Assembly: GCF_000336775.1 (NCBI RefSeq)
Contig: NZ_AOLJ01000001.1
Location: forward strand, 1 to 64,000
Direction: 5' to 3'
DNA: 64,000 nucleotides
From: Haloferax gibbonsii ATCC 33959
GTDB taxonomy: Archaea; Halobacteriota; Halobacteria; Halobacteriales; Haloferacaceae
Notes under the pieces: model-generated
Told to the model about the DNA's origin: nothing
What the model saw: only the letters and a program-made list of their open reading frames with translations
Database searches by the model: none
Position numbers and translations under genes: made by a program
In this document: positions 1,869 to 57,526 of the stretch, piece by piece
Layout: each line of letters starts with the position of its first letter
Position numbering within the stretch: position 1 is the first letter of the stretch

Positions 1869-2067
1869 TATCCCTCGTGGTCCGTAATTCTGGTATGTTA
1901 ACTATACAGTTGACACCAGTACTGAATAACTATCTTTATTTCAGAAAAGTAAAATAGGTGATTCATTATCGTAGGTCTGACTGAGGTATCCCAAAATTAG
2001 GGTACTAAACGTTGCTGCGGGATCACGTCGTCACGTTTATTTTATCAGTGCCGATACCCCCGTGTCA

Positions 2068-4376: not shown

Positions 4377-4487
4377 ATGTCAGTAAGCACCCAACAAGCT
4401 TCGAACACGAACGATTCAGTTGTATCAACTTCGTTGTGGCGACGTAGTTACGACCGACGATGGCTTGCCGGTGATCGGTGCGTATGA
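4377..4487 (+). CDS. Possible 36-aa small ORF coupled to the DUF7344 gene
   Basis: An ATG at 4377, preceded by a purine-rich GGGGTGGGAG, opens a 36-residue frame (MSVSTQQASNTNDSVVSTSL...). Its TGA overlaps the ATG of the next gene in an ATGA junction at 4484-4487. The overlap and the Shine-Dalgarno-like sequence suggest translational coupling. No homology is apparent and the peptide is short, so it could be a leader peptide or a chance frame. Confidence 0.35.
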   Translation: MSVSTQQASNTNDSVVSTSLWRRSYDRRWLAGDRCV

Positions 4488-4840
4488 GTACCCAATTCTC
4501 CTGCCCTACTGCAGCAGAAGTTTTTGCATTGCTGGGGAACCGTCGTCGGCTCCTCGTTGTCCGTTACCTCTCGCTGTTTAGTTGCGGCCAGACAGTAAGT
4601 GTCCGTCACGTTGCACGGGTCATCTGTGGCATTGAAACAAACACGCCGCCGAGTCAGGTGACTTCTACTGCGTATGAATCAGTATACAACGGTCTAATTC
4701 AAAATCACCTACCACGGATGCACGAGCATGGACTCATTCAATATGACGAGCGTGGCAAAGAGATCGGTGTTTTAACCGATGTGTTCTACTATGCGTATCT
4801 CGTTTCGTTGGTGAGTCTACCGCGAACTCTCCACCAGTAG
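4484..4840 (+). CDS. DUF7344-type winged-helix protein
   Basis: The protein matches the haloarchaeal DUF7344-type winged helix: VFALLGNRRRLLVVRYL at the N-terminus, a DNA-recognition segment, then SVYNGLIQNHLPRMHEHGLI followed by an IQYDERG wing. Such 100-120 residue proteins are inferred transcription regulators, usually beside mobile or defence genes. The ATG at 4484 overlaps the stop of the small ORF at 4377. It lies immediately upstream of dpdA with its own 150-bp spacer, so it is a plausible local regulator of the modification locus; that link is inference. Confidence 0.7.
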   Translation: MSTQFSCPTAAEVFALLGNRRRLLVVRYLSLFSCGQTVSVRHVARVICGIETNTPPSQVTSTAYESVYNGLIQNHLPRMHEHGLIQYDERGKEIGVLTDVFYYAYLVSLVSLPRTLHQ

Positions 4841-4990: not shown

Positions 4991-7885
4991 GTGCGATTCT
5001 ACGTTCCAGAATGGGACGACGCTGTCGATGCTCACTATGATTTCGAGCACGACGAACTCTCTGCGATTGACCGCTCAGAGCGGGAACTTAGCTACATCTG
5101 GGATATCTTTGAGTATGGCACGACCCCGATTGATGGCGTTCTAATTTCGCGCGAGCAGGTCGAAACGACGAACCGCAAATCTGAGCGATTACGGAAACAC
5201 GGTGTCTACGACGACCCTGTCCTGTCGATTCCGGACTGGCTTCCAACAATCAGTGACTGTGGTGCGTGGGGCTACAAATCTCTCCCTTTCCCCCCGTACG
5301 ACAACGCGGAGATGCTGGATTTCTACGAAACGCTCGATGTCTCTGTGGGCGTCACAATCGATCATCTCGTGTTAGGGTCTGGAAAAGACAAAGGTCGTCT
5401 GTATCTCGATGAACGTGCTTTCAGCGATGGATTTTCTAAAACAGATATCCCTGACCGGATAACCGATGTCGTCGACCTGATGGTCGATGAATGGCCAGAC
5501 GAGTGGCCAAGTTACGTCGATGACTACGAACCGAGTCTCCGGACACATGAGGCTGTCAGCCCCTTCATACAGTCTGACTTCGAAGGTGAGGTTGATACTG
5601 TCCTCTCTACATTAGCTTCAGACCCGCGGGCGGTTTATCGTGCTGACGACGCTGCGTTCCGATACGAATTAACGCTCGACAATGCCCAAGAGATGTACAA
5701 GCAGTACCAAGCCGGAGAGTATTCATTCCGGCTGATGGTTGCCATCCAGGGATGGGATCCGTCCTCCTATGTTGAGGCGCTTGAGCATGTTCTCGAGATT
5801 GGCTACGATTATGTCGGAATTGGTGGTGTTGCTGGGAGTCCGATCCACGACGTCAGAAAAATCGTGAAGAGTGTCGGAAAGTCAGTCAAAGCATTCGAGC
5901 GCGAACACACCTGCCGGATCGATACCCACGTGTTCGGGTTTGCGAAGACCGAAGGGTTCGACGCAGTCGGTCGTTCTGGAATGACGAGCTTCGACAGCGC
6001 CAGCATGCTTCGTTCGGCATGGACTGGTGGTGACAACTATCGACTAACCAACGACGAGCGGTATGACGCGATTCGTGTCCGATACCCCTCGAATCGGGAT
6101 TCGTTGCACGAGTCAGTCGAAAAGTCGCTCCGTGGACGAGAACTGTTAGTTGCGCTGCGAGCGTACGACGCCAAGAGATCGCTCTCAGCGGCTGTTGACA
6201 CGTGGTACGAAACAGCAGCGGCGGTTATCCCCGAGACGCGAGAGTATCTTCGAGAACACCGCCATGAAGATCGGTATGACCAGTCGCTTCTGCAAGATAT
6301 TGAAGAGGCGTTCCGTGACGACTTCACACACGCCCGCGAGTTGCAGGCGAGTTTCAGCGACTCTCTCCGTGGAAAGCTTGTGAAACTGCTGCGCAAAGAC
6401 AGTCCCGAAGACCCAGTCCCCTTCGCGGAGTACGACGAGTTACTGAATACTGCAGCGACTGCATTCGCCGACTTCCCGCGAATACCCACACTTATTGAAG
6501 ACGCCGAACCGACGCCGCTTGAGAGAATCTGGACTGCAGTCGAGGACTACGCTACGTGGATCGGTGATGATGACCTCCTCGAAGACTACCGTCGCACGCT
6601 CGCGAACCGACCTTGGGAATCTTGTGAGTGCCCAATCTGCAGCGAACACGGTATTGAAGTCTGCATCTTCCGTGGGAATGACCGGAACCGACGGCGTGGA
6701 TTCCACAACACACGCCGGTTCTACGACGAGTTTACTGATTCGATTCCGAAGATTCTCGTAGCGGTTCAGGGATCTGCAGGGCTCAGTCGGTATGATACGA
6801 TTGAAGACTATCTCCAAAACGAAGAGCCAGCGTTCTGGGAGGCCGTCCATGATCTGCCGGTCGCTGAGATCGGTGTGTTCGATGCGGCAGGTGTCCGTGA
6901 GTGGTGGACAGAGACGGGCCAAACTGTTTCCTTTGCGCCAACACGGATGCGAGAGAACCTTCAAGAGCAGGCGAACCGCTACCAGCACCTGTTCCTTGTC
7001 ACGCCAGACGGTGACGTCGATACTGAGCTCACACAGGCGGTTGAGGTAAGTGACTGCGAACTACAGGCATTCTCCAGTCCAGCGGACCTACGACGCGAGG
7101 TTCTGGAGGCGTGTGGTGAAGACTACGTTGTTGGTGATGACTTCGTCCCGCACGTCCCCCAATTGGACCCTACTGACGGCCTGAATATTCTCGTTGTCGA
7201 CCAATGCTCTGGGAGCAAGGAGTTCCCGGACGGTGCACCGGTATTCGATGCAGAGGAGACGCTTGAATATTCACGAGAAGAACTCCTCGAACGAGATAAC
7301 GTTCCCCAGATTGCAGCACGCGACCTGTATACTGGCCGCCAGCAAAAGTATGTTCGAGAGGCTGTTCGGACACTTCGCGATGACGGGCACGAGGTTAGTC
7401 GGTATTTCATTAGTGCCGGTTTCGGACTCGTGTCAGAATATGACCCGCTCCCGCCATACGAAGTCACGTTCAGTTCGATGAACGTCAGCGAGATTCGCCA
7501 CCGCTCGTCTGAGTTGAATATCCGCCCCGACTTGGAGGACGTCCTCAAGCAGAGTGATTACGACGTCGTCTTCTTCACACTCGGAAGTGACTATTACACG
7601 AGCATTGACATTGACTCGCTCGTCCGAGACGTTCCTGCGGACCAGATCGGTGTTGTGTTTAATCGTGATCTGGTCAACGACCAATATGACAATATTGTGT
7701 CAGTTGGTGCACGAACTGAAGACGCAAAAAATCACGGCACAATTGTTGTTGGCCTGAAGGGGGTATACCTCAAGAACTTCGCTCGCCGTGTTGGGACTGT
7801 CGACTCACTCGACCCAGATCTCGTTGAAACACTTTGTCGGGAAGTCGTAGAGGGGCCAACACAAGCAGCACTTGAGCAGTACTAA
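4991..7885 (+). CDS. dpdA: DpdA, DNA guanine transglycosylase with C-terminal DUF6884 domain
   Basis: DpdA enzymes replace guanine in DNA with a 7-deazaguanine base (preQ0 or a derivative). This protein has the full TGT/DpdA set: D89 in ISDCGAWGY (base recognition), VSVGVTIDHL, AIQG near 253, GYDYVGIGGV, HVFGF, and the nucleophile-bearing TSFDSASMLRSAW (D335) with GGDNY. A CECPIC zinc cluster at 545-550 is followed by CIFRGNDRNRRRGFHN, typical of DpdA. Residues about 730-960 form a DUF6884 domain starting at QCSGSKEF. At 964 residues it is over twice the length of the bacterial DpdA I recall. It starts with GTG and is followed 79 bp later by a second TGT-like gene. The queD gene nearby supports the pathway. 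The exact base transferred cannot be read from sequence. Confidence 0.85.
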   Translation: MRFYVPEWDDAVDAHYDFEHDELSAIDRSERELSYIWDIFEYGTTPIDGVLISREQVETTNRKSERLRKHGVYDDPVLSIPDWLPTISDCGAWGYKSLPFPPYDNAEMLDFYETLDVSVGVTIDHLVLGSGKDKGRLYLDERAFSDGFSKTDIPDRITDVVDLMVDEWPDEWPSYVDDYEPSLRTHEAVSPFIQSDFEGEVDTVLSTLASDPRAVYRADDAAFRYELTLDNAQEMYKQYQAGEYSFRLMVAIQGWDPSSYVEALEHVLEIGYDYVGIGGVAGSPIHDVRKIVKSVGKSVKAFEREHTCRIDTHVFGFAKTEGFDAVGRSGMTSFDSASMLRSAWTGGDNYRLTNDERYDAIRVRYPSNRDSLHESVEKSLRGRELLVALRAYDAKRSLSAAVDTWYETAAAVIPETREYLREHRHEDRYDQSLLQDIEEAFRDDFTHARELQASFSDSLRGKLVKLLRKDSPEDPVPFAEYDELLNTAATAFADFPRIPTLIEDAEPTPLERIWTAVEDYATWIGDDDLLEDYRRTLANRPWESCECPICSEHGIEVCIFRGNDRNRRRGFHNTRRFYDEFTDSIPKILVAVQGSAGLSRYDTIEDYLQNEEPAFWEAVHDLPVAEIGVFDAAGVREWWTETGQTVSFAPTRMRENLQEQANRYQHLFLVTPDGDVDTELTQAVEVSDCELQAFSSPADLRREVLEACGEDYVVGDDFVPHVPQLDPTDGLNILVVDQCSGSKEFPDGAPVFDAEETLEYSREELLERDNVPQIAARDLYTGRQQKYVREAVRTLRDDGHEVSRYFISAGFGLVSEYDPLPPYEVTFSSMNVSEIRHRSSELNIRPDLEDVLKQSDYDVVFFTLGSDYYTSIDIDSLVRDVPADQIGVVFNRDLVNDQYDNIVSVGARTEDAKNHGTIVVGLKGVYLKNFARRVGTVDSLDPDLVETLCREVVEGPTQAALEQY

Positions 7886-7964
7886 TTGACAATGCTGGCT
7901 TTGTCAGTAATCTTTCTATTAGGCCATTATCTAAGTAGGCCAACAGCCTATCCGAGCGGGAGGC

Positions 7965-8999
7965 ATGTTATACAGACGACGAACACTCGATCTCCCACAC
8001 GGAGAACTAGAGACACCTGTTCTCTTCCCCGTCCGTAATGTGGGAAAACGGTCGAGTGACAATACTCCCCCCTACATTGGATCAATTCCTGACTTACCAG
8101 TCGCCATGGTCAATACCCGGGCAATCCGGAATCGGAAACCGATGTGGGACCGGTTGACAAATGGAGTCACACTCCGGGAAGAGATGGATGTTCCGGACGA
8201 AACGATCGTTTTTGCTGATAGTGGTGGCTTCGATTTTAGTTCGGAGGAAGTCGACACTACCCCAGCAAAAACCCTCGAAGCACAGCAACGACTAGGTGCG
8301 GACATCTACGGAACTGTTGACATTCCACTCTCTCGTGAGAACCGAGCAGCAGAGAATCAGCGTCGAGTGAACCAGAGTATCGAATATGCACTAGAGGCGA
8401 GTGACCAACACCCTGGTGACGCAGTCCTTTTCGCAAGTGTGCACGGATATGACCCCGAGACGGTTCGGAACTCCATCGCACACCTCGAAAAACACGGAGA
8501 CTTTGATGGTTATGCTCTTGGGAGCATGGTTCCAATTCGAACAGATTATAAAAAAGTAACTAAGCTGATATTAGCAGCACGAACTGCAACAGACAAGCAC
8601 CTCCACGTCTACGGACTTGGTGGGCTTGTATACCAACCACTATTACTATATCTGGGTGTTGATAGCTTTGACTCGTCAGCGTTCATTCGGAGTGCCGGAA
8701 ATCGGAACTATCTGATACCAGGGTTCGGTGGTGAAGAGTTACGGAACATCGAGGAGTTAGAGCGACTTCCGTGTCCGTGTCCAGTCTGTGGACCACGGAC
8801 ACTCGCGGAGATTCGCGAGGACCGCTCTGCACTCGTGCAACACAACCTGTGGGCGTTAGCGACCGAACTGCGGCGGTTCCAGTACGTTGCTGAATCTGGA
8901 CGAGACATCGAAGAGTATCTCGACCTCAGGTTCAACGGAAACGAGGTCACGAAGCGTGCATACGAAACTGCAAAGCAACAAGTCCGGAGGCTCACATGA
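7965..8999 (+). CDS. Second TGT-like transglycosylase (short DpdA paralogue)
   Basis: This 344-residue protein shows a complete queuine/archaeosine TGT motif set: FADSGGFDF with D85, SVHGYDPE (the VQG-like loop), GYALGSMVP, HVYGLGG, and the nucleophile motif VDSFDSSAFIR with D236. A zinc site CPCPVCG (C270, C272, C275) is followed by H293. No PUA domain is present, unlike archaeal ArcTGT, so a DNA rather than tRNA target is likely given the neighbour. It starts at ATG after GAGCGGGAGG and overlaps the next gene by 4 bp. Two intact TGT folds side by side suggest a heterodimer or sequential specificity. It could also be a tRNA enzyme, but its operon argues otherwise. Confidence 0.8.
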   Translation: MLYRRRTLDLPHGELETPVLFPVRNVGKRSSDNTPPYIGSIPDLPVAMVNTRAIRNRKPMWDRLTNGVTLREEMDVPDETIVFADSGGFDFSSEEVDTTPAKTLEAQQRLGADIYGTVDIPLSRENRAAENQRRVNQSIEYALEASDQHPGDAVLFASVHGYDPETVRNSIAHLEKHGDFDGYALGSMVPIRTDYKKVTKLILAARTATDKHLHVYGLGGLVYQPLLLYLGVDSFDSSAFIRSAGNRNYLIPGFGGEELRNIEELERLPCPCPVCGPRTLAEIREDRSALVQHNLWALATELRRFQYVAESGRDIEEYLDLRFNGNEVTKRAYETAKQQVRRLT

Positions 9000-9892
9000 G
9001 CGACGAACGACCGACGATACGCCCGGTCACGCTGAGTCGGTTGGTAGAACTCACCTATAGTTGCGAAGATGGCTATAAGTCGACAGAGGAACTTGCAGAC
9101 ATCCTCGATGTGACCCACCGCCGCGCCCGCGAAACAATTCTCGAAGCGACGCGGATCTCGCTCTTATCTGAAGAGGAGGATATCGACGGCGCCATCTATA
9201 CTACAACAAGTATCGGCGAATCATTCTTAGCTGCTATTCGAGCCGAAGATTGGGACAAAGCGAGCTCAATCCTTGCCGTCCGGAGTCCGCATTACGGTGC
9301 GTTTCTTGAAGCGCTCGACGCGGTAGACAACGTTGGTCTTGACAGCCTCTTAGAGCATCTCGAAGAGACTCACGAATACTCACCCTACTCGTTCAACCAA
9401 ACCGGCATCGAAATTGTTGGAGACTGGGCTGAACGTCTCGGAAGCGTACAGCGAAATGCGTTCACAGGGAACTACTACCTCTCCCAGACAACCGAAATCC
9501 CTCGTAACTTCCATTTCATCGTGCTTGACGCATACGACGATCTTGAACAGACTGCTGGTGTTAATTTACGGCAGCGGTATCTCTCAATTCCAAAACTCAG
9601 AGAGGAGATCTGTGAGCGAATCGGTTGTAAGCGGGACGATTTCGATGACGCAATCCTTGCGCTGTGCCAGCAAAACGTCGGAAAACTCGAACTCTCGGGA
9701 GCACCCATGGATACTGCTGCCAAGGACGCTGCACTAGGCATCAAACAACTCGAGCTTGCGGATGAAGGGCCACTAATCACTACCTCACAGTCAACACAGC
9801 AAGTTATGTCAGGCGTCGAATTGTACGGGAAGAAATACTACTATCTCGCGGTTCACGACCGCGACATCACCTTTGAGCAGGAGGCACACTAA
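8996..9892 (+). CDS. Winged-helix protein of the dpd locus, 298 aa
   Basis: The first 60 residues form a helix-turn-helix (KSTEELADILDVTHRRARE). The rest is a helical body with no catalytic motif I recognise. Its start overlaps the stop of the short transglycosylase and its own stop shares a base with the ATG of the next ATPase (TAATG), so all three are translationally coupled. A protein of similar size and architecture (16114-16977) lies directly before another ATPase in the second operon. It may be an adaptor or DNA-binding partner of the ATPase; function is unknown. Confidence 0.65.
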   Translation: MSDERPTIRPVTLSRLVELTYSCEDGYKSTEELADILDVTHRRARETILEATRISLLSEEEDIDGAIYTTTSIGESFLAAIRAEDWDKASSILAVRSPHYGAFLEALDAVDNVGLDSLLEHLEETHEYSPYSFNQTGIEIVGDWAERLGSVQRNAFTGNYYLSQTTEIPRNFHFIVLDAYDDLEQTAGVNLRQRYLSIPKLREEICERIGCKRDDFDDAILALCQQNVGKLELSGAPMDTAAKDAALGIKQLELADEGPLITTSQSTQQVMSGVELYGKKYYYLAVHDRDITFEQEAH

Positions 9893-11049
9893 TGTCCAAC
9901 AACTTCACCATCACCGATCAGCAGCGAGACTACTCACAGTACGACCTTCGCGGAAACCCATTCCCCTACAGTCCAGTCCCCGCAGAGAACCCCGAGATAT
10001 TTTGTGGCCAAGACCACGTCTCAGAGAAAATCAGTTCGACGGTGTCTTCGGTGCTGTCTACTGGGAAGTCGAAACACCTCGTCGTGACTGGCAAATACGG
10101 AAACGGGAAATCGCACACGCTAAAGTACACTCGCTCGCTCCTTCGTGATCGCGATGACGTCGTTGTCGGCTATGTCGCACAACCTGGTGAGGGGTTCCTC
10201 GACATCTACCATGAGTTTGTCTACGACCTCGGGTTCACTCACCTTCAGAACTTAGCCTACGAGTTCCTTGCCTCAATCACGCAAGAATGTACGGACGAGT
10301 CTCCAGCGAGTGCAGCAGCGATGCGATCGCTCATCGACGAGGGAGACGTCTTGCTGTCTGAGATCATCCCTGAAGCAATCAAGCAATTAAGCGATATCAC
10401 AAAGTTCGCCGACTTCGCTCGTGCCATCGTTCATATGATCTACGAAGATACCAACCTCTACGCTTGGCAGTGGCTGACAGCTGAGGGAATCCGCTACGAG
10501 CAGCGCAAAGAGATGGAGATTCACAGCGCCCTTGATGATGATACGATGGGGGTTCGAGCATTTACAGCGCTCAAAAATATGCTTCTCGAGTTAGGGTATA
10601 CGGCTGTCTTCGTTTTTGTCGATGAGTTCGAGAGTATTGCTCGACTCTCTCCAAAAAACGAACAAGCGACGCTGAATAGTGTTCGTCACCTCATGGACCA
10701 GAACAGTTCTGGTCTCTGCTTGCTCTTCGGGTGTGCACCCGAAGTGTGGCAGGATGTCATGAGCGAATACCATGCATTCAGCGAGCGTATCGGCCAAGAA
10801 GTGACGCTTAAGCCACTCACTAGCGAGCATCTGTCTGATCTCATCGCAGATTATCTCTCGTTAGAGCGCGTAGACGGTGGTGCGGAAGAGTCGCTACGAC
10901 CCTTTACTGAAGAGAGTCTAAATCTGATTCTGCAGCGCTCACAGGGAAATGTTCGTCAAATCTTAGCGCTCTGTAGTCGGCTCCTTGACGATGCTGCAGA
11001 CGCTGACTATGAGACGATTTCCGTCGACGTAGTTGAGGAGGTCATCTAA
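9892..11049 (+). CDS. P-loop ATPase of the dpd locus (ORC/AAA-like)
   Basis: The protein opens like an ORC/Cdc6- or BrxD-type ATPase (DLRGNPFPYSPVP, ENPEIFCG). Walker A is GKYGNGKS at residues 67-74, Walker B is VFVFVDEFES with DE at 244-245, and a sensor-2-like QGNVRQILALCSRLL lies near the C-terminus. At 385 residues it lacks an obvious C-terminal origin-binding winged helix. It is coupled by one base to the upstream winged-helix gene, so the two probably form a complex. It could load or remodel proteins on DNA during base exchange, or gate restriction. A decayed copy of its 3' end lies downstream of queD at 11735-11862. Confidence 0.75.
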   Translation: MSNNFTITDQQRDYSQYDLRGNPFPYSPVPAENPEIFCGQDHVSEKISSTVSSVLSTGKSKHLVVTGKYGNGKSHTLKYTRSLLRDRDDVVVGYVAQPGEGFLDIYHEFVYDLGFTHLQNLAYEFLASITQECTDESPASAAAMRSLIDEGDVLLSEIIPEAIKQLSDITKFADFARAIVHMIYEDTNLYAWQWLTAEGIRYEQRKEMEIHSALDDDTMGVRAFTALKNMLLELGYTAVFVFVDEFESIARLSPKNEQATLNSVRHLMDQNSSGLCLLFGCAPEVWQDVMSEYHAFSERIGQEVTLKPLTSEHLSDLIADYLSLERVDGGAEESLRPFTEESLNLILQRSQGNVRQILALCSRLLDDAADADYETISVDVVEEVI

Positions 11050-11073
11050 CTCTGGATTGATGCGTGAAGACAT

Positions 11074-11535
11074 TTACTCAGCACAGAGCTCATTCGTCTC
11101 TGCAATCTCTATGGAGACATCCGATATGTTGTCCGGTAACGACTCGAGCAGTCGGTTTTCGAGAACAACAGCCATTACTTCTACTGTCGGTGGGTGGTCA
11201 AGGACGACGACGGCATCGCCATCTCCTGACTGAGTAAATGCATCGATGAGTGGGTCACCCTTCTCCAGAAGGAAGCGGTGGTCCCACTCATCGATAGTAC
11301 TCGTTATATCTGCCTTGTCGACGAGCCATCCCTCTTCTGTTAGCGTGCCCGTGACTGTGACGGATATTTCGTAGTTGTGTCCGTGTGGTCGAGAACACTT
11401 TCCCTCATGGTGAATAAGTCGATGGCCTGAACTGATTCGAATCGGCCGGTCTTGTCCGATATGGAGTGTTCGTTCACCGGCATCAGATAGCGTGGTTCGA
11501 CTGGACTCTGATTCCTCTGATATTCGTCTAGTCAT
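11074..11535 (-). CDS. queD: QueD, 6-carboxytetrahydropterin synthase
   Basis: QueD converts dihydroneopterin triphosphate to 6-carboxytetrahydropterin, an early step toward preQ0, the precursor inserted by DpdA and TGT. The zinc ligands are H38 (SGHRL), H51 and H53 (HGHNY). The catalytic Cys lies in EGKCSRPHGHNY, EWDHRFLL carries the D/H pair, PPTVEVMA matches the family, and a C-terminal ETNE completes the site. At 153 residues it is a normal length with an extra 25-residue N-terminus. It converges on the ATPase gene, 24 bp away. No queC, queE or folE is visible here; haloarchaea usually have these for archaeosine, so this copy may boost flux for DNA modification. Confidence 0.9.
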   Translation of the reverse strand: MTRRISEESESSRTTLSDAGERTLHIGQDRPIRISSGHRLIHHEGKCSRPHGHNYEISVTVTGTLTEEGWLVDKADITSTIDEWDHRFLLEKGDPLIDAFTQSGDGDAVVVLDHPPTVEVMAVVLENRLLESLPDNISDVSIEIAETNELCAE

Positions 11536-14283: not shown

Positions 14284-14934
14284 TCAAGAACGTGTTCGAG
14301 AGATCAGGATGCGTCCGGTTGTGGTCAGTTCAACAACCTTCGTTTTGCCGTGCGTTTCAGAGGTAACGAGTCCTTGTCGTTCGAGGAGCTTCACGTGTCG
14401 GGTAATGGTACTCTTCGAGACATCCATGGCCTCGGTGATCTCAGTAAGTGAGACCGGCGTGTCGAGTGTGACGATGGTCTCGAGTGTCGGCTCCGTTTGT
14501 GCCGGTGCGTTCGCCGTGAGGTCGGGGAGGGTTCGTTCCCGGACTTCGCCGTCGATATCGCTGAACTGATAGCTTGCGTGGATATGGTGTGTCCGCGAGA
14601 GCGCAGCGACGGTGAGAGGTAAGAAGATATCCCGGGCTCCACCTCCGAAGATGACGACAACCTCCCCGTTGGCAGCATCGATGAGTGTCCCGCAAATTTG
14701 GATCGCCACCTCGAAATCGTCGTGCGGTATCTCGGTCGTCTCAATGTCAACACTTGGTTCGATCTGTTCGATCATCCGACGAACGTCGTTAATTGCTTGA
14801 GTACCGCGGCTATCATCTGTGGTTGTGGTCGGAATCAAGAGGTCGATGTGGGTGTTGCGCTCGATGCCCTGACTGAGTATAGGCCGTGTTACGCGGGTGC
14901 TATCGTATCCTATGGGTGCAATATACGATCGCAT
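14284..14934 (-). CDS. csa3: Csa3-like CARF/HTH transcription regulator
   Basis: The N-terminal half is a CARF domain: IAPIGYDSTRVTRPIL for the first strand and ligand loop, and VVVIFGGGARDIFLPL for the G-rich binding loop. The C-terminal 70 residues are a MarR-like winged HTH (VSLTEITEAMDVSKSTITRH, then a wing with GKTKVVELTTTGR). Csa3 proteins control CRISPR and associated effector genes in response to cyclic oligonucleotides. At 216 residues the length is typical. It heads the minus-strand csa3-CARF-PIN group and is divergent from the seven-gene operon at 15257. It probably regulates one or both sides through the shared intergenic region. Confidence 0.85.
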   Translation of the reverse strand: MRSYIAPIGYDSTRVTRPILSQGIERNTHIDLLIPTTTTDDSRGTQAINDVRRMIEQIEPSVDIETTEIPHDDFEVAIQICGTLIDAANGEVVVIFGGGARDIFLPLTVAALSRTHHIHASYQFSDIDGEVRERTLPDLTANAPAQTEPTLETIVTLDTPVSLTEITEAMDVSKSTITRHVKLLERQGLVTSETHGKTKVVELTTTGRILISRTRS

Positions 14935-15256
14935 TGCCTATGACATCCCTTCCTCGTATATAGTACTGTTGCGCGTATATGAAACAGTTCTAGTCTAGTG
15001 TACTATTTCGGAGTGGCCACACTCTTAGGAATCGAGTATCTCTATGGACTCACTATATTTGCGCGAGTGAAACAAACGGAATCTATGCCCTCATGTGTTG
15101 TATTTCTCTCTAGTTTGCAATAGTTGTTGCTCCCACGACAGATATAATACGTTAATAGTTCTATCCATTTCCACGAATCGCTATGCAGCAACGAGGGTGC
15201 CAATTGTAACCAAACCGATTCATGGCATCAAAAACGATAATCCCAACCATGGATTT
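14935..15256. promoter_or_regulatory. Divergent promoter region with candidate Csa3 operators
   Basis: This 322-bp AT-rich region separates csa3 from the defence operon. It contains an inverted repeat ACTGTT (14965-14970) and AACAGT (14983-14988) with a 12-bp centre holding GTATAT, and a second symmetrical site GAGTG-GCCA-CACTC at 15011-15024. TATA-like runs (TATATAG near 14958, ATATAATAC near 15144) could serve the two directions. The plus-strand frame remains open through this region, but its composition is non-coding and I place the start at 15257. Confidence 0.45.
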
Positions 15257-16111
15257 ATGACACAACCTTCCCCATGCGAGAACGTGCCTAGTCTGCCTTC
15301 TATCGAGGATATCCTGAAGACGACGACATCGACCGTCGTCATGCGGGACCCGCAACTCCAGAAGCGCAACAAACACGCACGTGCACAACTCCGGAGTATA
15401 CCTTTCTTCGTAGAACTCGGCATCGACACCGTCGTCCATGCGGACATCTACGACAATGACTTCAAACTCATTGACTACACTCACTACTCTTCGGGGGACG
15501 TTGTGGACACCGTCGATGACATCGAGTTCCCTCTCGTCCATATCACCACTCAGGAAGGAGTCGAGGAATACGGCGAGGAAGAACTCGTCCGAGCATTACT
15601 CCAACGTGCCACCGAAGAACGCGAGCGATACATCCTAGTCACCGATACAACCTCGCCTCGTCTCCCGACGTACATCCAAAAGCCGGGGCGGTCTATCGTT
15701 GACGACTACGACGTCGCTGTGAAAGACTACAAGAAACTCTCTGCCGACTACCTCGGTGACTACGTCGACTCCGCACTACCGGCGTCTCAGACACGCAATC
15801 TCCACTATCACCGGGCCTCCGAGTACCACAAACAGCACGACGCACCCGCAGACACTCTCGAGAACATCTACGATTACACGCGTGCACCCGCAGAGAGTCC
15901 CGTCTGGGAACCGCTTTACTACTTCATCGAGCACGATCTCGAGAACGTCCTTGACGAGTATTCCGAGCGTATCAGTGACGCACTCCGATCGTGGACTGAG
16001 CGTGGTGAAACCCGGTACGTCGCGAATCAGATGCTCGATGCACTCCGTGTTTGCGAGTTTGAGAAAGAACAGCTAAAAGAATACCAGCAGACCGACCCTC
16101 ACCTTCGCTAA
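15257..16111 (+). CDS. First gene of the helicase/PLD operon, unknown function, 284 aa
   Basis: I do not recognise this protein. The ATG at 15257 (MTQPSPCENVPSL) is preferred over earlier in-frame starts, whose upstream sequence looks non-coding. The middle (ELGIDTVVHADIYDNDFKLI and ERYILVTDTTS) has alternating strands and helices, suggesting a Rossmann-like or nuclease-like core, but no catalytic motif is certain. The C-terminus is acidic and helical. It lies 2 bp before the winged-helix gene, so it belongs to the operon. It could be the counterpart of a small Dpd subunit. Confidence 0.6.
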   Translation: MTQPSPCENVPSLPSIEDILKTTTSTVVMRDPQLQKRNKHARAQLRSIPFFVELGIDTVVHADIYDNDFKLIDYTHYSSGDVVDTVDDIEFPLVHITTQEGVEEYGEEELVRALLQRATEERERYILVTDTTSPRLPTYIQKPGRSIVDDYDVAVKDYKKLSADYLGDYVDSALPASQTRNLHYHRASEYHKQHDAPADTLENIYDYTRAPAESPVWEPLYYFIEHDLENVLDEYSERISDALRSWTERGETRYVANQMLDALRVCEFEKEQLKEYQQTDPHLR

Positions 16112-16113
16112 TT

Positions 16114-16977
16114 ATGGCTGACTATCAATTTGCGGTTAACAAGCCGGATCGAGTGCTGATCAACTACAACACAGTTCGTTCAGCCGAACTAAAGGCCGTT
16201 TACGAGTCGCTCGTGAGCAATCGGACGGTTCAGAGCATTGTCTCGGACTTTGCACACGAGAAGGAGGACAACGTCCGCAATTGCATCAGCTTCTTGCACG
16301 CGATTGACCTCATCGAACGCGGCGGTGACGACCGTGTTGTCTCCCCATTGAACCGTGACATGTTCCCAAATCTCGAATTCGAAGCACGGTTCCTCTATCA
16401 CCTCCGCCAGCAACGGTTCCCGAAGAACCATCTGACGCGGATTCAGAATGTCGCACTAGAAACCGCCGATCGGTCGGTCACTCTCGACGTTCTCCTCCCG
16501 CGGGTGAAGGGTGAACTTGACCAGTACGACTTCGCATGGAACGAGACCAAACTCCGCATGTGGCGGGCGCTCAGTACGCAACTCGGGTTAGTCTCCGAGA
16601 CGAAAACACGCGGCGTGATCCTGAGTCCGTGTCGTCGCCTTCTCTATGATCTTCTCGAACTCTATGAACAACAGGAGGACAGCACAGACCTGTATAGCGC
16701 TCTCACATGGATTGAAGAGAACTTCTTCAACGTCTTCGAGACGACGACTGGCTCGCCTCGGGTCCATCCTGCGATCTCTGATGTCCTTCAAAATATGGAG
16801 TCCGAAGACGTTCTCGAACTCCGTGGGATGTCCGACGCCAGAGACACAGTCACGCTCCCTGAATCCGTGCACACACAACGCTCCCGGTCGGTCAACGTCT
16901 ACGACCTAGCTACACTCCCTGACTCGCCCACCTATCAGTATCCGCTCTCGCAGTTTGAGCAGGTGATCACGCAATGA
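16114..16977 (+). CDS. wHTH adaptor of the large ATPase, DpdG-like by position
   Basis: The N-terminal 80 residues look like a winged helix (LVSNRTVQSIVSDFAHEKED, then NCISFLHAIDLIERGGDDRV). The remainder is helical, with MWRALSTQLGLVSE and a regulator-like C-terminus. At 287 residues it precedes a large ATPase and overlaps its start by 4 bp (ATGA), the same arrangement seen with the 8996/9892 pair. In bacterial Dpd clusters a protein of similar size (DpdG) precedes the ATPase DpdH. That equivalence rests on position and length, not on a motif, and should be treated as a hypothesis. Confidence 0.6.
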   Translation: MADYQFAVNKPDRVLINYNTVRSAELKAVYESLVSNRTVQSIVSDFAHEKEDNVRNCISFLHAIDLIERGGDDRVVSPLNRDMFPNLEFEARFLYHLRQQRFPKNHLTRIQNVALETADRSVTLDVLLPRVKGELDQYDFAWNETKLRMWRALSTQLGLVSETKTRGVILSPCRRLLYDLLELYEQQEDSTDLYSALTWIEENFFNVFETTTGSPRVHPAISDVLQNMESEDVLELRGMSDARDTVTLPESVHTQRSRSVNVYDLATLPDSPTYQYPLSQFEQVITQ

Positions 16978-19900
16978 GTAGAATGTCCAAAATCTGGGAT
17001 GATAGCGTCGTCCGTGACTACCTGACGCCGGAAGCTCATCAAAAATCTCGCGAACAGTTCCTGAAGACACACATAGACATCGATAAGATCCGAGCAGACT
17101 ACCTTTTCCCGCACGAGGGAACAGACGAATTCGTCACGCAGGAGGAGTTCCGAGACGCTATCCTCAAATCAAAGGTCGACGACGACAATCGGATATTCAT
17201 CCTCCGTGGCGAGACCGGAAGTGGGAAAAGCCAGCTCTGTCAGTGGCTCGAATACCAGATCGGCGCTGATCCAAATGAGGGGGACGAGACACACATCGCA
17301 CTCCACGTGTCCCGGAGTAAGACTGGGATCGGCGATATACTCGACATCATCTCTGGACCGATCGACACCGACGTTACTGTGAGTAACGTCTCGGACCTCG
17401 ACCCCGAGAAGGTTGCCGACGCGATCATTACCACGCTTCAAGCGTTCGGTGCGGGGATGGAGCAGTTCAGTAAAGACGAAATCGATGCCCTTACTGTAGA
17501 TCGATCGAATGCAGCCGACCTTTCGTCAATCCTCGAGAAAAATATCGCGGAGTATCAGGAATCCGCGACGAGTGAGGGCGAAAAGCGGATGTCAGACCTC
17601 ATCACGAAGAAGGATTACAGGGACCTCTCAATGGCGGCCTTCGGCTCGACGAAGGGAAGCGATACACTCTTTCCCGCTTTACAGAGCCAAGTCCACGAAA
17701 TCCTTTCCCGAAACCTCGGTGTCGAAGACTTCCAAGGGAAACTCGAGGAACTTTCCGAGGAATACGAGAAACGAAATCTCCGTCCCGTCCTCATCTGTGA
17801 GGATCTTACGACATTCACTGTCCTCAAAGAACAACTCCTCGATCACATCTTCCAACTCGACAGCGGTCACTACGACGTCGTACTTGGCTGGACGTCCGGT
17901 TGGGAGAAGGATGACCTCTCGCGTGCCTTGGGTACGAGCCAGGGCATCAGCACGTACATGGAGGACCGTGCAGAAGGGTACCTTAGTACGACGGACGAGG
18001 ATGGTCGGGCGTACTTCCTCGACGATGACCTCACCGTCAAACTCGCCCGGAAATACATGTCGGTTATCCTTGATGAGTCAGATATGGACGAGTCACTTGC
18101 CGATGGTGTCCTCGAGTCGTTCGACAGTCTGTACCCGTTCAACGAGACGTTCATCGAGGAGTCCTACAACCATCTCATTCAGGATGGAAACAAACGTCGA
18201 ACCCCCCGCCTACTCTTGATGCGAGTCATTCGAGAGTGCCTGAGCTCAACCGTTCCACCCTTCGACGCGATCGAGGATAACCCGTACGTGGAACCGTTCC
18301 CCTCCCCAGTCGATCTCTCGTACACGGAGAGTCTCCAGCGACTCGGCAAGTGGTACGGGAGCGCAACGACGGATCGCCAACTCCGCGTTCACCGCCAGAT
18401 CCCTGAGACGTTTGACGTTCCGCTGACCGATGTCAATATCGACGACGACTGGGCATATTTACAAGCGGACGTCCCGGCTCCGACACTTAATCTCGGGGTC
18501 AGTGAGGGAACGTTCCATCCCGGCGAATACATCACGCTACGGGCGACGCTCGACAACCGTGGCGAGGAAGACGTTACGATTCGTTTCAACGGTAGCGAGA
18601 TCGCGACGACCGACTCCGACGGTTTCGCTTCCGTTCGGCTTCCGAACGAGAAGGGAGACATTACGTTCCAGGCTGAGAAAGATGGTGAGACAGACGCAAC
18701 AGCCGTTACCGTCGTGGAACCATCTGACGATACGTCTATTTCGGTCACGGTCAACCCGAAGACGCCAGCGGTGAGTGACGAAGTCACCGTCACAGCACGT
18801 GTAAATGGCGAACCACGAAGGGGTGTGCGAGTCTCCATCGACGATAACGAACTCGGCGAAACACGTAGTGACGGGAAGATTCATTTCAACGCGCCGGATA
18901 CTGGGTCGGCCACCGTCGAGGCAGTCTATGGCGACGCACGCGAGGAGACGACAATCGACATCGAGAGCTCAGACATCCACATTCCCGTTGGAACTGACCT
19001 CGACTCGACGACGGTCAAAGAGTACCTCCTCCAGTACCGTAACTGGATCAAGGTTGGTGACGCCTACGACAGTTCGACAGTCCTCCGTAAGGGGACCGCT
19101 GGCGTTCTAAACGAGTGGCACGACCCGACTCTCCTCGGCAACCTCAACGCGCGTAACGACGGTGTCCATGGCATCTATTACACACGTGGAGCTGACATTC
19201 CGGTCACAATCGTCGGCGCAGACGAGCGTCAGGGGATGAGCTTCGAGCTCGACTTCGGTGTTGAATACGACGATATCTACGAACCGCTATTCTGGTACGG
19301 CATTAGCGAGTCGGGCGAGTTCCCCCAAGAAGACAAATATGACCTCAACTACGATCTCCTCCGCGCGTGGACGGACAAACAGGTCGCCGACTTCCGAGCG
19401 AAGATGCGTGCCGATCTGGAAGCGTGTATTGACCCGATGACGCTCGAGGAATTCACCGTACTCGCGCAGTTTCTTATTCTCAACGCGAAGACCGGTCAAC
19501 GCGAGATCGAAGCCGAGATGATGTTCGAGAAACCTCCAGAGGGTGGATTCATCCCCGGTGCCGAAGACGAACAGCCGTCTGCCCTACGAGAAGCGACGCT
19601 GGATCTTCTCAAGTCTCGAAACGCTCCGTACCATCTCTCGAAAGGACTGTTTCTCCTCAAGTCGAACGTCGTTGACCGCGAACGTCTCTCGAAGGCTATC
19701 CAGAACGTCTCCGAAAACCTCGATCAGTACCTGTTGCAGGCCATGCAGATCGACACAGCGGATCTCTCCAGCGCTTACCAGATCAGCACCACTCGATCGA
19801 CTGGCTACGGCGTCGACATCCTCTTCGACCGTGTGAAGGCCTATGCGACGACGCTCGACGATGTCTCGGCCGAACAGAACGCCGTGCACGTCACTGAAAC

Positions 19901-20333
19901 CATCGACAGGGTTACCACCTACTATGAACCGAACCACGACCAGGACGACCTCCACGATGCACTCACGCAACTCCATGACGTCCTCGATAAACTGGACGCG
20001 AGCAAGTACGAGTCGTGGAAAGAAGCCCGTGAAGCGGTAGCGGGCGACGCAAAGATCGACTTAGGGCAGTTCCGTCAGCGAATGAGGACGTTCGAGGATA
20101 TCTCCGATAAATATGGCTACAAACTCATCGCGACGCTTCATGACTATGAGGAGAGCCGAGCGACGGAATCGGCATGGGAGATCTACGAAGCGATCGCAGA
20201 GATGATCGAGGAAGCAGATGGCGTCACACTCCCAGAAGATGTCGGTTTCCGTGACCGCGTCAGAGATCTCTCAGAGTTTGAGACGTACGAAAAGCGGCGG
20301 AATGCCATCGAAACCACACTTGGAGGGAACTGA
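16974..20333 (+). CDS. Large P-loop ATPase with two Ig-like domains, DpdH-like by position
   Basis: Residues 74-95 hold Walker A (RIFILRGETGSGKSQLCQWL) and a later RPVLICEDLTTF is a good Walker B, so this is an AAA-type NTPase of 1119 residues. Between about 500 and 670 are two beta-rich repeats of Ig-like or carboxypeptidase-regulatory type, marked by LRATLDNRGEEDVTIRFNG and VTARVNGEPRRGVRVSIDD. Such domains are usual in cell-surface proteins and odd in a cytoplasmic ATPase. The C-terminal 400 residues are helical, with no signal peptide or membrane segment. It overlaps the wHTH gene by 4 bp and precedes the coiled-coil gene by 2 bp. Likely role: ATP-driven core or switch of the restriction complex. 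Confidence 0.75.
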   Translation: MSRMSKIWDDSVVRDYLTPEAHQKSREQFLKTHIDIDKIRADYLFPHEGTDEFVTQEEFRDAILKSKVDDDNRIFILRGETGSGKSQLCQWLEYQIGADPNEGDETHIALHVSRSKTGIGDILDIISGPIDTDVTVSNVSDLDPEKVADAIITTLQAFGAGMEQFSKDEIDALTVDRSNAADLSSILEKNIAEYQESATSEGEKRMSDLITKKDYRDLSMAAFGSTKGSDTLFPALQSQVHEILSRNLGVEDFQGKLEELSEEYEKRNLRPVLICEDLTTFTVLKEQLLDHIFQLDSGHYDVVLGWTSGWEKDDLSRALGTSQGISTYMEDRAEGYLSTTDEDGRAYFLDDDLTVKLARKYMSVILDESDMDESLADGVLESFDSLYPFNETFIEESYNHLIQDGNKRRTPRLLLMRVIRECLSSTVPPFDAIEDNPYVEPFPSPVDLSYTESLQRLGKWYGSATTDRQLRVHRQIPETFDVPLTDVNIDDDWAYLQADVPAPTLNLGVSEGTFHPGEYITLRATLDNRGEEDVTIRFNGSEIATTDSDGFASVRLPNEKGDITFQAEKDGETDATAVTVVEPSDDTSISVTVNPKTPAVSDEVTVTARVNGEPRRGVRVSIDDNELGETRSDGKIHFNAPDTGSATVEAVYGDAREETTIDIESSDIHIPVGTDLDSTTVKEYLLQYRNWIKVGDAYDSSTVLRKGTAGVLNEWHDPTLLGNLNARNDGVHGIYYTRGADIPVTIVGADERQGMSFELDFGVEYDDIYEPLFWYGISESGEFPQEDKYDLNYDLLRAWTDKQVADFRAKMRADLEACIDPMTLEEFTVLAQFLILNAKTGQREIEAEMMFEKPPEGGFIPGAEDEQPSALREATLDLLKSRNAPYHLSKGLFLLKSNVVDRERLSKAIQNVSENLDQYLLQAMQIDTADLSSAYQISTTRSTGYGVDILFDRVKAYATTLDDVSAEQNAVHVTETIDRVTTYYEPNHDQDDLHDALTQLHDVLDKLDASKYESWKEAREAVAGDAKIDLGQFRQRMRTFEDISDKYGYKLIATLHDYEESRATESAWEIYEAIAEMIEEADGVTLPEDVGFRDRVRDLSEFETYEKRRNAIETTLGGN

Positions 20334-20335
20334 CT

Positions 20336-21091
20336 ATGGCTATACAGTCCACAGCGCTCGAGTCAAAACTCGAGAGCCTCGAACAGAAGGCGGACCAGTA
20401 CGACACGCGAACGAACACGGCAGCTCGAGTTAACAAAGCCGAAGAACACCTGATGGAACTGAACCAGGCGCTTAACAAACTCGAGGGTTCGCTTGACGTT
20501 TTCGAACAGCAGGCGGGAATCCTAACAGAGGTCTTCGGACACTCCCCCCCGTCGAGGGCGACAAGTGCCCGTGACAAGGCACGCTCGATTACACGCGTCT
20601 CTCAGGATGACGTTCTCGACATGATCGACGAAAGTGGCCAATCGTTGTCGAATCATATCGACGAGGTCCGAGAGACACGTGAGGACGTGAACGACGCACG
20701 ACGATCCATCAACGATCACCTAAAAAAGATTCAGCGTCGAAAACTCGATGACGCGAACACCGCGGAGAGCATTCAGAAGATCGTCGGCGAGGATCCAGAC
20801 GCGATGGACACGATTAGCCGGTATCGGTCGTTCATCAGGTCTATCCTCAATCCCAATGGTTCGGTTTCCAGCCTAAAGACACAGTGGCAGGGACTGGAAA
20901 AGGCCTTCGAGAACCTCGATACGGACTGGAAGGGCTTCCAGAGACACCACGACCTCAGCGATCAAACGATTGAAGATCTGAAGACGCTTAGTGAGGAGGG
21001 CCAAGTCGACCTCGATGACCTTTCAGATGCGAGCGTCAATGAGATGCTAAATATTCCCGAACTCCGGTCGACAATCAAGGTGAGTCTATAG
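20336..21091 (+). CDS. Coiled-coil operon protein, 251 aa
   Basis: The protein is almost wholly helical. Residues about 5-55 form a strong coiled coil (SKLESLEQKADQYDTRTN and LMELNQALNKLEGSLDVFEQ) and a second follows near 100-130. No enzyme motif is visible. It starts 2 bp after the ATPase stop and ends 6 bp before the first helicase, so it is embedded in the operon and probably a structural bridge between ATPase and helicases. I do not recognise a family. Confidence 0.65.
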   Translation: MAIQSTALESKLESLEQKADQYDTRTNTAARVNKAEEHLMELNQALNKLEGSLDVFEQQAGILTEVFGHSPPSRATSARDKARSITRVSQDDVLDMIDESGQSLSNHIDEVRETREDVNDARRSINDHLKKIQRRKLDDANTAESIQKIVGEDPDAMDTISRYRSFIRSILNPNGSVSSLKTQWQGLEKAFENLDTDWKGFQRHHDLSDQTIEDLKTLSEEGQVDLDDLSDASVNEMLNIPELRSTIKVSL

Positions 21092-21097
21092 ACGCCA

Positions 21098-24000
21098 ATG
21101 GAGAATCCTGCTAAACGTGCGGAAGCGGCGATGGACGCCTATCGGAAACACTTCATTGGTGCCGGTGGTCGAGCGGCGCGAAACGTCGCCCATCGTTTTG
21201 AAGCCACTAACAACGGCGAGGAATCCGTTATCGGCTTTCGCGGCCCATATCTGCAGGCGCTTAATGTTGCGAACTGGAGCACAAAGTCTTGGCTCTCGTT
21301 CAGCAAGCGAGCGGGGATTCATCCGCTTGTCCGTCTCGCGTTCGAGGATATCGGGTTCCGCCGACTCTATGACTTCCAAGAGCGGAGTGTAGAGACGATC
21401 CTCGACGGGCAGGATACTGTTATCACGGCCGCGACCGGCCGGGGGAAGACCGAAGCGTGGCTCATCCCCATCCTTGACTACATCCTCAATGCGAATCAGG
21501 GGAACGTCGATGAGAGTTGCCCTGATGATGTTAAAGCGGTCCTCACGTATCCGACGAAAGCGCTCGCCCAGGACCAGTTGAAGCGCCTGATCAAGTACCT
21601 CTATCGGATCAACGCGGAACTCCCGACGAACGACCGCATCACTGTCGGGATCTACGACGGGGACACGCCGGGAAATATGTCCTCGCGTGCGGAGGGCTAC
21701 CTGAATGCGACGTTCAAGTACTTCGAGTGTCCGGGCTACAACGACGCGCTCGAGAAATGTCAGAACTGCGGGAAGAGTGTTCATGTCCGGAATGCCGGCC
21801 AGCGTTACGAACTTGAACCCGAGAAGAAGCAGTGTGTCGACGACGTTCCTTTAGACTTCCTCCGATTGACAAAAAAAGAGATCCTCGAGGAGGGTGTTGA
21901 CATCCTACTCACGAACCCGGACACGATCAACCTCAAACTTGTCAACACGAACGCGGGCGACGAACACGACACGTTTGTCTACGAGCCACAGTTCTTCGTC
22001 TTCGACGAGGTCCACACCTACGACGGTCTCTTCGGGAGTTATACGGCGATGCTCACGAAGCGTATCCGAGCACTACGCGGGACACGTGATGTCGACGCCC
22101 CGCAGGTGATCGCGAGTAGTGCCACCGTCGAGAACGATGTCGAATTGTTCCGGCGTATCAGCGGAGCGGCGGACGTCGCGCACGTCGATGAAAACCCCCG
22201 CGAACTAGACCCACCGCCACTCCAGAACGTACCCGACGCACTCTACGATGAACCGATAACGGTGGTGCAATTACGTCGCGCGGTTCGTGGTGAGAGATCG
22301 TACCCGGCCCCGCTCGACTCGTTCGACCCATCCATCGACGACCCGAGTACGATCGACAACGAGAGCCTTGACGAACTGGTCGGTGACGCGCTCTTCGAGC
22401 ATCTCACCTCGAAGTCGAACGATCCGGTCGTACACGCTATACAGCACTTCCACGAAGAACTTGCCGACGAGCCACGAACTCGCGAGGCGTTCCTCGACAC
22501 TCTCGAGACAGAGTACTCGCTCACCGACGCACAATCGGAGACTGCCCTCCAAAACTTCCGCACGCTCGGCGAGTACTCGGGCTTACTGGAGAACCGAAGC
22601 CACCTCTTCTCGTGGCCGCTCGACGGGTTCTACAGTTGTGCACAGTGCGCGGCCGTCTATCGTTCCCCACATGACTCGTGTGCGGAGTGTGACTCGGGCA
22701 TCGTCACGCGTGCGACGTACTGCCGTCGGTGCGCTGAGGAAGCTCTTGTGGCGTGGTACTGTCCCGAGTGTGATCAACTCGAGTCCTATACGCCGTCCGA
22801 AGAGGGAAGCTTCGCCTCGCGGGATGAGCAGTATTGTGGGCGGTGTGAGGCCGCACGCGATGACGAGGTGCGTCTGCTTCGAGTGTCGTTCACGCCCGAA
22901 CTGGAGTGTCAGTCCTGTGGCGCTGTGGAAGAGCGCAGCGTCATTGAGACCTGCACATGTGATGCGGCGATGACGCGTACCTCTGTCAACGAGTGGACGT
23001 GCACGAACCCACAATGTGGCCGAGCGAAATCCGCTGACTCAGGGTGTTCCGCCTGCGGTTCCGAGCAACGCGTCCTCCGACGGAGTGACGCGGCCGTCGA
23101 GTGCCGGTCCTGTGGGCAGACGTACGATGCCACAGACATCCCACGCCAGTGCGCGTGTGGGCATTCGGTCGAGAACACCCGGCTCATCCCTTGGATATGC
23201 GTCCGCGGGGGATGTACGCGCGACTATCACGCGCCGTCTCCCCCGACGGAGTGTGAGTGTGGTACGGAGGTGTTCGTCAAGAAGGGGCTCTTTGAGGTGT
23301 TCGAGAATGACCACTGTACTGAGTGCGATACCGCCGTCCTCTCTGGGTCATCCTGCCAGTGTGACGATCCGGAGCACCAACAGCAGGCCGACGCCTTTCA
23401 GTCCTATCAGACGATCACTAACGGCGGACGCATCGTTCCGGTTCGCGACCATACGTCAGTCGTCCCGTGTCGTCATCAGCGACTCGGGTATCGGATCGGA
23501 CAGCGCTACGACGAGTTGGTCCGCAGTCCGAACAACATCGCCGTCACGACCTCTCAGTACTTGCTCCGCGGGGTCGCGGACGATGAGGACTACTCGTCGG
23601 CGAAGATGTTGTCGTTCGCCGACTCCCATCGCGACATGAAGGAACTCGGACGGGACTTCAACGAACCGGAAGTTGAGACACTCCTCGATCAAGCACTCGT
23701 CGAAGCGATTCGTACTGCCGACGACTCGTGGCTGACGCTCGATAACGTGCTCACGGAATCGTTGGCGTGCATCGACACCCTTCACGACGAACTCAGTCCA
23801 CCCCGTGCCCTCCAGGACGTCTCGTTCGACTTGAAGGAGCATCTCGTCGACCGCTCTCGCCGGTTCATGGACACCGAGGAGGCAATCCGGGACAGACTTA
23901 GTCGACGGGCGGTCCCACACAGTTACACGAAACGGTTCCGAGAGCGGGGTGGCTCGCTAGCTTCGGACGGCCTCGTCGACGTCCGCGTCGATCCGGGGGT

Positions 24001-57443: not shown

Positions 57444-57526
57444 GGCAATTATGAGACCGTGGTAGAACAGCCAACGGAAGTTACATACTGAAATGATCGA
57501 CCGATGTAGACATTCTCGGACATTTT

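What the first reader, a model, noticed from the sequence alone, without database searches (positions are those of the whole stretch)
4991..11535. Archaeal DNA 7-deazaguanine modification locus
A DpdA with all catalytic and zinc motifs, a second TGT-like enzyme, a wHTH/ATPase pair and queD lie together. In bacteria dpd clusters install 7-deazaguanine bases in DNA as a self mark. The layout here (two TGT folds, DUF6884 fusion, local ATPase) differs from the bacterial order I know and may be a haloarchaeal variant.
Basis: partly seen in the sequence, partly recalled or inferred. Interest (0 to 1): 0.85.

Follow-up and report, generated by a model that had tools for sequence, protein, structure and literature searches.

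The report
Archaeal DNA-marking and restriction system
These genes look like the self-marking half of a large archaeal antivirus system that swaps guanines in the cell's own DNA for a modified base and lets a linked helicase-nuclease module attack unmarked DNA; the system type was named in a 2025 preprint (BRIGADE), but its two-enzyme marking core is unusual and untested.

Summary
At 4991-11535 lie a DpdA-family DNA-guanine transglycosylase with a C-terminal DUF6884 domain, a second catalytically intact TGT, a winged-helix protein, a BrxD-like ATPase and QueD. Together they match BRIGADE Type II, named in a 2025 preprint (PMC12458937) as Dpd-like and confined to haloarchaea, so the kind is known. 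What I add: among 391 genomes of the class DpdA and the second TGT co-occur in 55, and either alone in one each; catalytic and zinc residues of both are conserved; no above-cut-off DpdB occurs in 28 carriers; the DUF6884 domain models like YaaA (DUF328), the family assigned to DpdC; DpdA, the TGT-wHTH-ATPase triad and the effector are exchanged independently; and the two-TGT core also occurs in methanogens. Most likely it is a restriction-modification-like defence marking host DNA with dPreQ0/dADG, the triad replacing DpdB. The host of virus HVTV-1, whose DNA carries dPreQ1 without a viral DpdA, has this locus. No modified base has been measured; the second TGT's substrate is inferred.

The parts
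4991..7885 (+). DpdA-family DNA-guanine transglycosylase (residues 1 to ~700) fused to a C-terminal DUF6884 / DpdC-like YaaA-fold domain (residues ~730-940)
   Evidence: NF041059 279 bits vs cut-off 200; 7ui4 E 1.3e-39; D89, D124-H125, D335, C545/C547/C550/H572 invariant in 55 homologues; DUF6884 30.8 vs 30 bits; AlphaFold model pLDDT 85.7 matches YaaA 5caj Z 9.7
7965..8999 (+). TGT2: second tRNA-guanine-transglycosylase-family enzyme, archaeal type, catalytic domain only (no PUA domain)
   Evidence: PF01702 103.8 bits; TIGR00432 135.9 bits, model positions 14-346 of 441; 1iq8 E 1.1e-21; D85, D119, D236, C270/C272/C275/H293 invariant in 48 homologues and in 5 methanogens
8996..9892 (+). wHTH1: winged-helix DNA-binding protein, start codon overlaps the TGT2 stop
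   Evidence: no family hit at a useful level; AlphaFold model (mean pLDDT 64, N-terminal ~150 residues confident) matches MarR Z 12.9 over 74 residues
9892..11049 (+). BrxD-like ORC/Cdc6-type AAA+ ATPase
   Evidence: PF10923 BrxC_BrxD 59.7 bits; Walker A GKYGNGKS at residue 67 and Walker B FVDE
11074..11535 (-). QueD-like enzyme of preQ0 synthesis (extra copy; one of three PTPS-family genes in this genome)
   Evidence: PF01242 72.1 bits; zinc His and Cys residues invariant; housekeeping queD-queE-queC on contig C20
11920..12588 (-). 222-aa protein of unknown function, optional partner (family present in 11 neighbourhoods, often between queD and dpdA)
14284..14934 (-). Csa3-type CARF-wHTH protein, divergent from the effector operon; likely its regulator
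   Evidence: PDLC01860 275.8 bits, Csa3_N; beside the u338 gene in 13 effector modules
15095..16111 (+). effector module: u338, unknown protein (first start codon probably too early; relatives have ~289 aa)
   Evidence: conserved first gene of the module in 14 genomes
16114..16977 (+). effector module: wHTH2, 287 aa (winged-helix assignment is a guess from position; no significant family)
   Evidence: conserved in 12 or more modules
16974..20333 (+). effector module: large ATPase, weak N-terminal match to DpdH
   Evidence: PADLOC DpdH 7.9e-8 over residues 7-100; Walker A GETGSGKS
20336..21091 (+). effector module: coiled-coil protein, 251 aa
   Evidence: weak coiled-coil type hits only; conserved position
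21098..26620 (+). effector module: YprA-family helicase 1, 1840 aa
   Evidence: DruE/DpdJ/DrmA hits; Walker A, DEVH, motif VI, many CxxC, C-terminal Cys4
26617..32076 (+). effector module: YprA-family helicase 2, 1819 aa, 36% identical to helicase 1
32066..34042 (+). effector module: PLD-family nuclease
   Evidence: PF13091 33.7 bits, DrmC 38.4 bits; HxK...GSANxMxNS motif in 21 of 22 relatives aligned, the other being unaligned there

Best explanation
The genes at 4991-11535 are the modification half of a BRIGADE Type II, Dpd-like restriction-modification defence system whose effector half is 15095-34042. Proposed working: preQ0 from the chromosomal pathway, boosted by the local QueD, is exchanged for guanine in host DNA by DpdA; the fused DUF6884 domain hydrates the nitrile so that the mark matures from dPreQ0 to dADG. 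There is no DpdB: the TGT2-wHTH1-BrxD-like triad takes its place, with wHTH1 and the AAA+ ATPase opening or targeting DNA and TGT2 making a second base exchange, perhaps on the other strand of the site. The effector ATPase, two YprA helicases and PLD nuclease act on DNA lacking the mark; Csa3 may control their expression. Shown: gene content, catalytic residues, folds, co-occurrence, absence of DpdB. Inferred: the mark, its chemistry, the TGT2 substrate and the restriction step.
For: DpdA above equivalog cut-off and similar to DNA enzyme 7ui4. DUF6884 domain hits PADLOC DpdC models and its model's top VIA-align match is YaaA/DUF328, the family assigned to DpdC in PMC12839542. DUF6884 is fused C-terminally in archaea and N-terminally in Paenibacillus: independent fusions with DpdA. 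queD, queE, queC, folE or yhhQ recur beside the locus in 27, 23, 20, 17 and 9 genomes (the last four identified by reading the sequence). DpdA/TGT2 55/1/1/334. Effector PLD in 28 of 56 DpdA genomes, 1 of 335 others. DpdB absent above cut-off in 28 of 28. Modules reassort but stay paired. The HVTV-1 host record AOLQ01000002, cited for a host DpdA because the virus lacks one (PMC6884629), carries this locus (L055).
Against: No 7-deazaguanine has been measured in DNA of any carrier, as far as I found. TGT2 is nearest tRNA arcTGT. The DUF6884-YaaA match is only Z 9.7 by VIA-align, with no significant Foldseek hit. About half of the carriers lack the Type II nuclease, so this effector is not universal. 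The two YprA proteins are 36% identical, not 'nearly identical' as the preprint words it. Some carriers have broken or separated genes (G087, G331).
Confidence: 0.73

Rival explanations
1. TGT2 does not act on DNA: it modifies a tRNA, or a protein (TGT-fold Cap10 takes part in protein-nucleobase conjugation in type IV CBASS), and so serves as a sensor or licence of the system while DpdA alone marks DNA.
For: TGT2 is nearest arcTGT. It evolves more closely with wHTH1 and the ATPase (r 0.92, 0.91) than with DpdA (r 0.83), and moves separately from DpdA. Cap10 shows TGT folds can serve protein-nucleobase conjugates (PMC11996544).
Against: TGT2 lacks the PUA domain; arcTGT and ArcS are encoded elsewhere. 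All base-exchange and zinc residues are kept. It occurs almost only with DpdA (55 of 56 genomes) and its partners are DNA-type proteins.
Confidence: 0.22
2. The modification genes are a plasmid or island self-protection (anti-restriction) trait, as in phages, and the effector module is an unrelated neighbour.
For: The locus lies on a plasmid in Haloferax alexandrinus and other haloarchaea. 7-deazaguanines protect phage DNA from restriction (PMC6884629). Transposase-like genes lie near the locus.
Against: The effector PLD is found in 28 of 56 DpdA genomes but in 1 of 335 others; six carriers have an alternative DpdJ-type effector nearby.
Confidence: 0.1
3. Both TGT enzymes are tRNA-modifying paralogues and the locus has no role in DNA.
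For: TGT2 similarity to arcTGT; deposited annotation calls DpdA a queuine tRNA-ribosyltransferase.
Against: DpdA matches the solved DNA-guanine transglycosylase 7ui4 and no tRNA TGT (E 1.3e-39); the genome already has arcTGT and ArcS; the locus is patchy, 56 of 391 genomes.
Confidence: 0.04

Closest known systems
BRIGADE Type II (Bell et al. 2025 preprint, PMC12458937)
   Same: Two YprA-family helicases, PLD nuclease, predicted 7-deazaguanine gene cluster, haloarchaeal host
   Different: The main text does not describe the modification core (two TGTs, DUF6884 fusion, BrxD-like ATPase, no DpdB); the helicases here are 36% identical; the core reaches methanogens with a DpdJ-type effector. The preprint's supplement could not be read.
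Bacterial Dpd island (dpdA-dpdK)
   Same: DpdA, DpdC-like domain, queD nearby, YprA helicase, PLD-type nuclease, DpdH-like ATPase N-terminus
   Different: No DpdB; DpdC-like domain fused to DpdA; second TGT; BrxD-like ATPase; two YprA helicases
BREX-related capture (BRC) systems, PMC12839542
   Same: A TGT with an ORC/Cdc6-type ATPase and a proposed NTPase substitute for DpdB
   Different: BRC has PglZ, HerA/FtsK and GNAT, none seen here, and no DpdC
Two-TGT Dpd-like loci on bacterial plasmids (Paenibacillus sp. 37 pART37, Picosynechococcus, Nostoc)
   Same: DpdA whose match extends over the DUF6884 part, plus a separate ~307-315 aa TGT and an NTPase or helicases
   Different: DUF6884 is N-terminal in Paenibacillus; the second TGT is only 25-31% identical over part of its length; the Picosynechococcus one shows no CxCxxC zinc motif

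Membership tests
BRIGADE Type II | Two YprA-family helicases encoded together | tested here: met
   21098-26620 and 26617-32076, helicase motifs and YprA-family hits
BRIGADE Type II | The two YprA homologues nearly identical and both ARMADA-like | tested here: inconclusive
   Same length and architecture, same best hits (DruE1 first, DpdJ second), but 36% identity; no YprA tree built
BRIGADE Type II | Zinc-binding modules and DUF1998-type Cys cluster | tested here: met
   13 and 15 CxxC motifs and a C-terminal CxC...CxxC in each helicase
BRIGADE Type II | Predicted 7-deazaguanine gene cluster | tested here: met
BRIGADE Type II | PLD or PD-(D/E)xK nuclease nearby | tested here: met
   PLD at 32066-34042
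BRIGADE Type II | Halophilic archaeal host | tested here: met
   DpdA 98% identical to Haloferax marisrubri, same genus
Canonical Dpd | DpdA | tested here: met
   NF041059 279 bits vs 200
Canonical Dpd | DpdB (DGQHR/DndB-type ATPase) | tested here: not met
   no match in own genome; none above cut-off in 28 carriers
Canonical Dpd | DpdC | tested here: inconclusive
   present as a fused domain: partial DpdC HMM hits and YaaA-like fold
Canonical Dpd | Restriction genes dpdD-dpdK | tested here: inconclusive
   DpdJ-related helicases, a PLD protein and a DpdH-like N-terminus only
Canonical Dpd | dPreQ0/dADG in host DNA | not testable with these tools
   needs LC-MS/MS
arcTGT (TgtA) | TGT2 passes the TgtA equivalog cut-off and has the C-terminal tRNA-binding domains | tested here: not met
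   135.9 vs 350 bits, match ends at model position 346 of 441, protein of 344 aa

The most novel reading that the evidence does not exclude
Archaeal DNA carries a 7-deazaguanine self-mark made by a two-transglycosylase machine in which an arcTGT-derived enzyme, loaded on DNA by a winged-helix protein and an ORC/Cdc6-like ATPase, and DpdA each exchange bases (for instance one strand each of an asymmetric site), so that DpdB is not needed; the marking enzymes and the restriction module are swappable units shared by haloarchaea and methanogens.
Probability: 0.35. Interest if true: 0.8.

Novelty: new member of a known kind. Interest (0 to 1): 0.56.

Why it matters
I found no report in the papers read of 7-deazaguanine in the DNA of an archaeal host. 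This locus names culturable carriers and a specific prediction. It may explain how virus HVTV-1 carries dPreQ1 in its DNA without its own DpdA: its host encodes this system. The two-TGT, DpdB-free core suggests a second way to insert preQ0 into DNA, and its presence in methanogens widens the range of the modification core beyond haloarchaea (not shown for the BRIGADE Type II effector).

Tried and rejected
Chance or misread frames: rejected by conservation in 55 genomes. Fusion or two-TGT layout as a haloarchaeal invention: rejected. DpdA-TGT2 as a strictly co-evolving heterodimer: not supported, since Halorubrum ezzemoulense (G284) pairs a DpdA that is 95-96% identical to one clade with a TGT2 that is 95-97% identical to another. 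Virus-borne copies: none confirmed in viral contigs; remote TGT hits only in Sulfolobus viruses. PDB profile search with the DUF6884 alignment gave no credible hit. wHTH1 model is low-confidence after residue ~150. Bacterial-type promoter/terminator scan no better than shuffles. The YprA1 genome search failed, so PLD was used as effector marker.
Full report
What is there. The window is the first 64 kb of a 134-kb contig of a 4.06-Mb haloarchaeal draft genome; its DpdA is 98% identical to that of Haloferax marisrubri, in the same genus. The five genes of the finding are present as described. The first encodes DpdA (NCBIfam 279 bits, cut-off 200; solved DNA-guanine transglycosylase 7ui4, E 1.3e-39) with a C-terminal DUF6884 domain. 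The second is a stand-alone TGT catalytic domain nearest archaeosine TGT; its stop overlaps the start of a winged-helix protein, whose stop in turn overlaps the start of a BrxD-like ATPase (coordinates). A QueD gene faces them. The genome has its own arcTGT and an ArcS-like gene (the ArcS identity is inferred from a partial TGT match) and a queD-queE-queC operon on contig C20, so preQ0 should be available.

Both TGTs look active. In 55 DpdA sequences D89, D124-H125, D335 and the zinc ligands C545, C547, C550, H572 never vary; in 48 TGT2 sequences D85, D119, D236 and C270, C272, C275, H293 never vary, and they are kept in five methanogen TGT2 sequences. Assigning these residues to acid-base, nucleophile and zinc roles rests on alignment with 1iq8 and 7ui4 and general knowledge of TGTs.

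The DUF6884 domain. Its model is good (pLDDT 85.7). The best VIA-align match is E. coli YaaA of the DUF328 family (5caj, Z 9.7, rmsd 4.7, 185 residues), though Foldseek gives no significant hit. DpdC is described as DUF328 in PMC12839542, and PADLOC DpdC models hit this domain. The domain is C-terminal in most haloarchaeal loci, a separate gene in 23 genomes, N-terminal in a Paenibacillus plasmid protein, and a related shorter domain (read by eye from the alignment: CT..K, DLYTG, SAKYGLL) follows methanogen DpdA. An invariant DQCS...K motif offers a candidate nucleophile; that is inference.

Neighbourhood and co-occurrence. Over 391 genomes of the class, DpdA and TGT2 are both present in 55, either alone in one each, neither in 334 (Fisher 6e-65). 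The genomes are related, so the p-value overstates independence, but TGT2 carriers span 37 of 86 genera. wHTH1 and the ATPase accompany them in nearly all intact loci. QueD, and families I read as QueE, QueC, FolE and the preQ0 transporter YhhQ, recur beside the locus. DpdB is absent from this genome and never above cut-off in 28 carriers; two carriers have weak partial matches.

The other half. From 15095 to 34042 runs an operon of u338, wHTH2, a large ATPase, a coiled-coil protein, two YprA-family helicases and a PLD nuclease. It recurs as a block, upstream, downstream or tens of kilobases away, in many carriers, with Csa3 divergent in front in 13. The PLD gene is in 28 of 56 DpdA genomes and 1 of 335 others (p 4e-26). 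Six carriers have a different effector block whose 915-aa helicase hits DpdJ. The combination in the window matches BRIGADE as defined in PMC12458937; Type II fits best, except that the helicases are 36% identical here.

Modules are exchanged. Haloferax marisrubri (G040) shares the modification genes at 95-100% identity but its effector is only 31-52% identical; Halorubrum distributum (G111) shares the effector at 69-87% but has wHTH1 at 55% and DpdA at 67%. G284 pairs a DpdA of one clade with a triad of another; TGT2 distances track wHTH1 and the ATPase (r 0.92, 0.91) better than DpdA (0.83). So there are three units: DpdA-DUF6884; TGT2-wHTH1-ATPase; and the effector. Exchange that keeps all three together suggests a common mark; that is inference.

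Beyond haloarchaea. A wHTH1 profile found five genomes outside the class, all with methyl-coenzyme M reductase. Each has TGT2-wHTH1; four have the ATPase and DpdA in the fetched stretch; three of these lie beside a DpdJ-type helicase block like the alternative haloarchaeal effector, and the fourth has another helicase block with a weaker DpdJ-type match. Bacterial plasmids of Paenibacillus, Picosynechococcus and Nostoc also pair DpdA with a second TGT, with much lower similarity.

Link to a known puzzle. Hutinet et al. found dPreQ1 in HVTV-1 DNA although the virus has no DpdA, and suggested host protein EMA11768 of record AOLQ01000002 (PMC6884629). That record carries this locus: fused DpdA at 69% identity, TGT2 at 84%, wHTH1, ATPase and YprA/PLD genes. 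I did not check the EMA11768 accession itself.

Verdict. A DNA 7-deazaguanine restriction-modification-like system of the BRIGADE kind, with an unusual DpdB-free two-TGT core. What it works like (Dpd) is well supported; canonical Dpd membership fails on DpdB; BRIGADE membership is met on most features. No modified base has been measured.

Noticed in passing
2062-3801: DUF262/GmrSD-type (Orf5/SspE-like) gene just upstream; relatives at 55-56% identity lie near the same modification genes in G120, G175 and G062, so it may be a recurrent partner nuclease.
   Followed up: partly
12706-14222: Two CARF-family genes (CARF-PIN-like and CARF_m1) between the two halves; the pair also occurs near the locus in G276 and G304.
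   Followed up: partly
921-1868: TFB-like (transcription factor IIB) gene, read by eye, next to the defence island.
   Followed up: no
36014-36850, 48793-49617, 51994-53160, 61344-62165, 50126-51415: Several transposase-like genes and a recombinase-like gene (read by eye) downstream, suggesting a mobile region.
   Followed up: no
56229-57557: Protein kinase-like gene with an FHA-like tail, read by eye.
   Followed up: no
4478-4840: DUF7344 gene whose family recurs near the modification genes in 18 genomes; possible regulator.
   Followed up: no
L169-L170 (G142 C2): The only genome with the effector-type PLD gene but no DpdA or TGT2; no other effector genes matched within 40 kb.
   Followed up: partly
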